Below are positions 47,469 through 47,790 of a stretch of 52,465 nt of DNA, in pieces. The notes below the pieces were generated by a model. That model searched no databases. It worked only from the letters and a program-made list of their open reading frames with translations, and had not been told where the DNA came from. Made by a program: the position numbers and the translations under genes. This stretch comes from an uncultured Mycoplasma sp. (GTDB lineage Bacteria; Bacillota_I; Bacilli_A; RF39; UBA660), in NCBI GenBank assembly GCA_946500895.1, contig CAMMXG010000008.1:1-52465 (forward strand). The letters are read 5' to 3'. Position 1 is the stretch's first letter; every line of letters begins with the position of its first letter.

Positions 47469-47498
47469 TTTACAAAGCAAACAAACATTTGCTATAAT
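47469..47498 (+). promoter_or_regulatory. promoter of candidate type I toxin mRNA
   Basis: TTTACA-18-TATAAT. Confidence 0.65.
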
Positions 47499-47561
47499 AT
47501 TATTAGGAACATTGAATAGTTGGGTGCTACCTCTAATCTTTAAGATCGGAGGTGATGCTAT

Positions 47562-47645
47562 ATGAGTAAGAAAGATTTTTTAATCTCTTCTCTACTTATT
47601 ATCATTCTTTTACTTATAGCATTACTTTTTGTAGTGTTAAATTAA
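47562..47645 (+). CDS. candidate type I toxin, 27-aa hydrophobic peptide
   Basis: MSKKDFLISSLLIIILLLIALLFVVLN; SD GGAGGTG; flanking regulatory RNA architecture. Confidence 0.65.
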   Translation: MSKKDFLISSLLIIILLLIALLFVVLN

Positions 47646-47756
47646 AAGAGCACCTAACTCATCTAATGAATTAGGTGCCATCCAATGTAACTTGGTAGCA
47701 CTCAACACTAGAAATATTGAATGTTCCTTTTTATTTTATGAAGTTTCCTTCATCTA
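47645..47756 (-). ncRNA. candidate antisense antitoxin RNA
   Basis: Minus promoter TTGAAA-17-TATGAT (47762-47790) and minus intrinsic terminator GCACCTAA...TTAGGTGC-TCTTTTAATTT (47650-47678). Confidence 0.6.
47650..47678 (-). terminator. terminator of candidate antisense RNA
   Basis: GCACCTAA / TTAGGTGC stem, U-rich tail only on minus strand. Confidence 0.7.
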
Positions 47757-47761
47757 TATAC

Positions 47762-47790
47762 ATCATACCATAGATTAGGCTCTTTTTCAA
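47762..47790 (-). promoter_or_regulatory. promoter of candidate antisense antitoxin RNA
   Basis: TTGAAA-17-TATGAT on minus strand. Confidence 0.65.

What the first reader, a model, noticed from the sequence alone, without database searches (positions are those of the whole stretch)
47469..47790. Unannotated candidate type I toxin-antitoxin module between tRNA-Arg and rseP
Seen directly: on + a TTTACA-18-TATAAT promoter, then an ORF with SD GGAGGTG for a 27-aa almost purely hydrophobic peptide, MSKKDFLISSLLIIILLLIALLFVVLN (47562-47645). The SD can be sequestered (ACCTC 529-533 / GAGGT 549-553, with inner ATCT/AGAT; positions are 47xxx). The predicted 5' end (GGAACATTGAATA-GTTGGGTGCTACC) is complementary to the 3' end (GGTAGCACTCAAC...TATTGAATGTTCC followed by TTTTTATTTT). 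On -, a TTGAAA-17-TATGAT promoter directly downstream of the rseP stop drives a ~110-nt RNA that overlaps the toxin mRNA 3' region. It ends at GCACCTAA...TTAGGTGC-TCTTTTAATTT, whose U-tract exists only on the minus strand. Established knowledge: convergent 3'-overlapping antisense RNA, SD sequestration and 5'-3' pairing are the layout of type I systems such as txpA/RatA and bsrG/SR4. Inference: this is a type I TA with a peptide I do not recognise.
Basis: partly seen in the sequence, partly recalled or inferred. Interest (0 to 1): 0.87.

Follow-up and report, generated by a model that had tools for sequence, protein, structure and literature searches.

The report
New type I toxin–antitoxin family
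Between a tRNA gene and rseP lies a 0.3-kb module that appears to make a tiny membrane-spanning toxin and the antisense RNA that silences it; it is one copy of a large, previously unrecognised family scattered, often in tandem, through the chromosomes of uncultured gut Bacilli.

Summary
The module is one copy of a multicopy family: 4 copies in this genome, matches in 54 of 100 relatives and, with a covariance model of the antisense RNA, in 38 of about 55 sampled genomes of the host's family but only 1 of about 343 other Bacilli. None was found in phage, plasmid or viral collections. Across 181 distinct copies both promoters, the SD, the 5'–3' complementarity and the U-tracts are conserved. Base pairing is supported by compensatory changes with strand-specific wobbles: a 5'–3' helix in the sense RNA, a hairpin and terminator in the antisense RNA. 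SD sequestration is near universal. The 27-aa peptide is under purifying selection (dN/dS about 0.19). Other copies carry different short membrane peptides on the same RNA chassis. Orphan antitoxins are common; no intact toxin without an antitoxin was found. At tRNA-Arg–rseP most relatives have an empty site. This is very probably a new type I toxin–antitoxin family working like bsrG/SR4, with an AapA-like 5'–3' lock. Toxicity and transcription are untested. No match in Pfam, NCBIfam, Rfam or PDB sequences.

The parts
47469..47498 (+). toxin-mRNA promoter (TTTACA-18-TATAAT; family consensus TTGnnT-17-TATAAT)
   Evidence: conserved in 181 copies
47505..47739 (+). predicted toxin mRNA, ending in a U-tract at 47728-47739
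   Evidence: fold z -8.8; U-tract 94-99% conserved at most columns
47506..47532 (+). 5' arm of the long-distance 5'-3' helix (includes the switching segment GUUGGGUGC 47519-47527)
   Evidence: RNAalifold with compensatory changes; top covarying pairs; at least 10 bp in 93% of 200 mRNAs against 28% of shuffles
47529..47553 (+). hairpin sequestering the Shine-Dalgarno sequence
   Evidence: 71 of 77 non-redundant copies z < -1, mean z -2.65
47562..47645 (+). 27-aa hydrophobic single-span peptide MSKKDFLISSLLIIILLLIALLFVVLN, putative toxin
   Evidence: dN/dS about 0.19 over 92 unique CDS
47650..47658 (+). post-stop segment GCACCUAAC that can pair either with the 5' segment or with UUAGGUGC 47671-47678
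   Evidence: strongest covariation of 27,377 column pairs
47694..47727 (+). 3' arm of the 5'-3' helix, directly followed by the U-tract
47762..47790 (-). antitoxin RNA promoter TTGAAA-17-TATGAT with extended -10 (TGnTATnAT in the family)
47643..47755 (-). predicted antisense antitoxin RNA (about 110 nt), complementary to the whole toxin 3' UTR
   Evidence: fold z -6.4; 16 of 19 pairs with double compensatory changes; covariance model R1
47649..47679 (-). intrinsic terminator of the antitoxin RNA (U-run 47648-47638)

Best explanation
A chromosomal type I toxin-antitoxin module. The plus-strand promoter makes a ~230-nt mRNA for a 27-aa membrane peptide. The nascent mRNA hides its SD in a local hairpin; its 5' segment can first pair with a segment just after the stop codon; when the 3' end is made, a roughly 25-bp 5'-3' helix closes the molecule. 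A convergent promoter makes a ~110-nt structured antisense RNA complementary to the whole 3' UTR; it anneals there and most likely causes RNase III decay and/or keeps the SD closed. Loss of antisense transcription or mRNA processing would release the peptide, which inserts into the membrane. Shown by sequence and comparison: the elements, their conservation, pairing and covariation, peptide selection, mobility and decay pattern. Inferred: transcription, toxicity, neutralisation, RNase III, release step.
For: Both promoters and both terminator-like ends conserved in 181 distinct copies. 5'-3' helix with compensatory changes among the top-ranked of 27,377 column pairs, at least 10 bp in 93% of 200 mRNAs against 28% of shuffles. 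SD hairpin in 71 of 77. Antisense helices: 92.9% of cells paired against 31-40% when slid, 16 pairs with double changes, no shuffle reaching the pairing, double-change or covariation values. G-U wobbles lie on the strand expected for each RNA. Peptide dN/dS about 0.19, against 0.45 and 2.36 in shifted frames. Orphan antitoxins but no intact orphan toxin. Empty sites at tRNA-Arg-rseP in relatives; in G008 the toxin half is deleted and the antitoxin kept. Copies within a genome form far stronger cognate than non-cognate duplexes. Matches the layout of bsrG/SR4 and txpA/RatA (PMC6562991).
Against: No transcription, toxicity or neutralisation data. Peptides this short and hydrophobic cannot be assigned by homology, and no library matches. 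About 19% of antitoxin tails lack a convincing toxin ORF. A local hairpin next to the sense U-tract exists in many copies (153 of 200), so the terminator role of the 5'-3' helix is open.
Confidence: 0.86

Rival explanations
1. A non-toxic regulatory membrane peptide under antisense control: the same RNA layout, but the peptide adjusts a membrane protein or stress response instead of poisoning the cell.
For: Conserved N-terminal M-x-KKD motif and purifying selection could reflect binding to a partner protein; toxicity untested.
Against: Variable copy number, tandem arrays of differing peptides, frequent loss, empty sites, and strong double locking of translation are typical of toxin modules and unusual for housekeeping regulators.
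Confidence: 0.1
2. A non-coding intergenic repeat (MITE- or REP-like) with an incidental ORF.
For: Dispersed and tandem copies in intergenic regions; presence/absence at one site.
Against: dN/dS about 0.19, third-position excess, SD and start conserved, hydrophobic ORF in 81% of copies against 0.4% in shuffles; conserved block runs promoter to promoter with no transposon-like ends seen.
Confidence: 0.02
3. A leader peptide or attenuator acting on a neighbouring gene (rseP or tRNA-Arg).
For: It lies between the two genes and splits the rseP terminator.
Against: Both neighbours are on the opposite strand; most relatives lack the module there; other copies lie at other sites.
Confidence: 0.01

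Closest known systems
bsrG/SR4 and txpA/RatA (Bacillus subtilis type I TA)
   Same: Small membrane toxin; antisense RNA overlapping the mRNA 3' end by about 100 nt; RBS sequestered by a short stem; structured antisense RNA ending in a terminator loop (PMC6562991).
   Different: Toxins 38-59 aa (recalled) against 27 aa, no detectable sequence relation; here chromosomal, multicopy and tandem, not tied to prophages; a roughly 25-bp 5'-3' helix is conserved through covariation.
aapA/IsoA (Helicobacter pylori)
   Same: Several chromosomal copies; 5'-3' long-distance interaction; alternative pairing states supported by covariation (PMC6733600).
   Different: Different phylum and peptide. In aapA the SD is sequestered by the long-distance interaction itself; here it sits in its own local hairpin, and the antisense covers the 3' UTR.
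Ibs/Sib and Ldr/Rdl (Escherichia coli)
   Same: Very short, almost purely hydrophobic peptides in repeated, often tandem chromosomal copies with cis-antisense RNAs (from general knowledge).
   Different: No sequence relation detected in Pfam; antisense placement and RNA structure differ; different phylum.

Membership tests
Type I toxin-antitoxin system (general) | Small hydrophobic peptide encoded by a translated ORF | tested here: met
   27 aa, conserved SD and start, dN/dS about 0.19
Type I toxin-antitoxin system (general) | Antisense RNA gene with its own promoter and terminator, overlapping the toxin mRNA | tested here: met
   By sequence and covariation only; transcription not measured
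Type I toxin-antitoxin system (general) | mRNA structure that blocks premature translation | tested here: met
   SD hairpin and 5'-3' helix, computational
Type I toxin-antitoxin system (general) | Toxin not kept without antitoxin | tested here: met
   79 of 89 heads have a tail; the rest are contig edges, weak strand matches or broken toxins; 29 of 122 tails lack an intact toxin
Type I toxin-antitoxin system (general) | Peptide is toxic and the RNA neutralises it | not testable with these tools
   needs expression experiments
txpA/RatA, bsrG/SR4 family | Antisense overlaps the mRNA 3' end | tested here: met
   compared with PMC6562991
txpA/RatA, bsrG/SR4 family | Homologous antitoxin RNA (Rfam) or toxin (Pfam/NCBIfam) | tested here: not met
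   no match at or near threshold
Fst/Ldr and Ibs toxins | Match to the toxin family model | tested here: not met
   no such family listed for 15 representative peptides at E up to 10; very short models have little power
aapA/IsoA | 5'-3' long-distance interaction with alternative pairings | tested here: met
   PMC6733600
aapA/IsoA | Homologous toxin peptide | tested here: inconclusive
   the window peptide has no PDB sequence match up to E = 10; AapA sequences were not compared directly

The most novel reading that the evidence does not exclude
One conserved RNA control chassis (convergent promoters, three-way switching segments, SD hairpin, antitoxin) carries interchangeable, partly unrelated membrane peptides, e.g. 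KKDFLI-type with a basic N-terminus against MDYLV-type with a basic C-terminus and an upstream leader ORF, and sequence drift of the switching segments makes each antitoxin specific to its own copy. The family would be an evolving type I TA platform that builds tandem arrays of insulated toxins in one genome.
Probability: 0.4. Interest if true: 0.75.

Novelty: new member of a known kind. Interest (0 to 1): 0.62.

Why it matters
Type I TAs are held to have a narrow range because they are found only by similarity to known ones (PMC12390103). This family is large (up to about 11 copies per genome), abundant in a whole family of uncultured gut Bacilli, invisible to gene callers and to Pfam, NCBIfam and Rfam, and offers hundreds of natural variants in which RNA switching and antitoxin specificity can be read from covariation. 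It makes it directly testable how paralogous type I antitoxins stay specific and how such modules spread without an obvious mobile element.

Tried and rejected
Rfam, Pfam, NCBIfam and PDB: no credible match. Phages, plasmids, viral contigs: none; one short viral match (L323) was a chance hit without a module. I considered that the sense terminator exists only as the 5'-3' helix; rejected as unproven because a local hairpin abuts the U-tract in 153 of 200 copies. I first took the peptide types to be unrelated cassettes; alignment shows several share M-x-K-[KR]-[DE] plus a hydrophobic run and may be diverged homologues, so only the MDYLV type is called different in layout. Literature search for type I TA in RF39/Tenericutes-like gut Bacilli found nothing specific. 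The host's formal family name was not established: titles read 'uncultured Bacilli/Tenericutes/Mollicutes' and Candidatus Onthousia.

Full report
Observation. The ORF 47562-47645 encodes MSKKDFLISSLLIIILLLIALLFVVLN. The sense RNA 47505-47735 folds to -80.3 kcal/mol (z -8.8; no shuffle as good) with the SD in a local hairpin and the 5' end paired to the 3' end; the antisense 47756-47642 folds to -38.6 (z -6.4) as three hairpins plus a short one, the last being the terminator.

Family. BLASTN of the 341-nt element finds 4 copies in the host genome and matches in 54 of 100 relatives, up to 11 per genome, many in tandem. A covariance model of the antisense RNA hits 38 of about 55 sampled genomes of the host family and one of about 343 other Bacilli; that one, G246/L317, is a full module near a contig end, which may be transfer or mis-binning (sequence read). 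No copy was found in phages, plasmids or viral contigs. Among records searched it is thus a chromosomal, lineage-bound family.

Conservation. In 181 distinct full-length copies the conserved block runs from the plus -35 to the minus -35. The plus promoter is TTGnnT-17-TATAAT; the minus promoter is TTG at -35 and an extended -10 TGnTATnAT, with T, A and the final T essentially invariant. The sense U-tract is 94-99% conserved at most columns.

Peptide. For 92 distinct 27-codon CDSs of the KKD type, third codon positions vary most and dN/dS is about 0.19, against 0.45 and 2.36 when the frame is shifted. Residues 3-5 (KKD), L7, I8, L11, I15, L21 and L22 are nearly fixed. A hydrophobic ORF with SD stands upstream of 81% of antitoxin tails (207 of 255), against 0.4% in shuffles and 2.5% in random genomic segments. 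Further peptide types ride on the same chassis: KTKTF, TKRE, EKYL, DKHEL and MDYLV. Several share a basic/acidic N-terminal start and may be diverged homologues; the MDYLV type has its charges at the C-terminus, with upstream leader ORFs in some copies. G014 carries KKD, TKRE and KTKTF modules side by side (L039).

RNA structure. On 87 sequences below 85% identity, RNAalifold finds the 5'-3' helix with compensatory changes (C-G/U-A, U-A/C-G, G-U/A-U/G-C). In a mutual-information ranking with background correction over 27,377 column pairs, the top pairs join the 5' segment to the post-stop segment (47527 and an insert column; 47523:47654), the post-stop segment to its terminator partner (47654:47674, 47660:47668) and the 5' to the 3' end (47510:47723). 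These three pairings exclude each other, so the simplest reading is ordered refolding as in aapA/IsoA (PMC6733600); the order is inferred. The SD hairpin is predicted in nearly all copies (mean z -2.65; 71 of 77 below -1). On the minus strand 16 of 19 pairs show double changes, 92.9% of cells pair against 31-40% when slid, and no shuffle reached the pairing, double-change or covariation values. Wobbles are strand-specific: G-U in the 5'-3' helix on the sense strand, U-G in the inner antisense hairpin on the minus strand, so each structure belongs to its own RNA. In 200 mRNAs of all peptide types 93% have at least 10 bp of 5'-3' pairing (shuffles 28%).

Decay and mobility. tRNA-Arg and rseP are neighbours in most relatives examined. 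Six genomes carry the module or its remnant there: complete in G000 and G023; toxin half replaced but antitoxin kept in G008; SD and start deleted in G026; damaged in G032; G010 partial at a contig end. Most others have a short intergenic region, often about 50 nt, holding a terminator-like hairpin. The module sits between the two arms of that hairpin, so rseP transcripts may run into the antitoxin gene (inference). In G-derived loci 79 of 89 toxin heads have an antitoxin tail; the ten others are contig edges, weak or opposite-strand matches, or visibly broken toxins, whereas 29 of 122 tails lack an intact toxin. The host's copy on C7 (L025) is such an orphan antitoxin.

Specificity. Predicted cognate antisense:mRNA duplexes are -143 to -160 kcal/mol, non-cognate -33 to -101.

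Mechanism and comparison. The layout is that of B. subtilis type I systems whose antitoxins pair with the mRNA 3' end and promote decay, with the RBS held in a short stem (PMC6562991), plus a 5'-3' lock like aapA (PMC6733600). By the tests possible here it behaves like a type I TA; it is not a member of any curated toxin or RNA family searched. Toxicity, transcription, neutralisation and RNase dependence are untested.

Verdict. A new type I toxin-antitoxin family by all sequence criteria; confidence 0.86 for function as TA, higher for a real, translated peptide gene under antisense control.

Noticed in passing
47430-47455 and 47791-47815: The module lies between the two arms of what is a single terminator-like hairpin after rseP in relatives with an empty site (e.g. 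L206); rseP transcripts may now read through into the antitoxin gene.
   Followed up: partly
L204, L205 (G008, G032), between tRNA-Arg and the module remnant: In two relatives the toxin half is replaced by a stretch holding a short minus-strand ORF with a good SD; not identified.
   Followed up: no
L271:730-1565, L262, L268, L260, L265: A divergent subtype with a short or overlapping leader ORF before a MDYLV/MEYLV-type peptide, suggesting translational coupling as in hok/mok.
   Followed up: partly
L317 (G246, another family of Bacilli): A complete KTKTF-like module near a contig end outside the host family: horizontal transfer or mis-binned contig.
   Followed up: partly
L146:2500-3850; L039:1540-2690; L050:1370-2480: Tandem arrays of 3-4 modules, in some cases with different peptides, each with its own promoter pair.
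   Followed up: partly
47738-47754 (minus strand): The antitoxin 5' end carries one of two alternative small hairpins (GATGAAGGAAACTTCAT or GTCAAGGAAACTTGCAT) that vary among copies.
   Followed up: no
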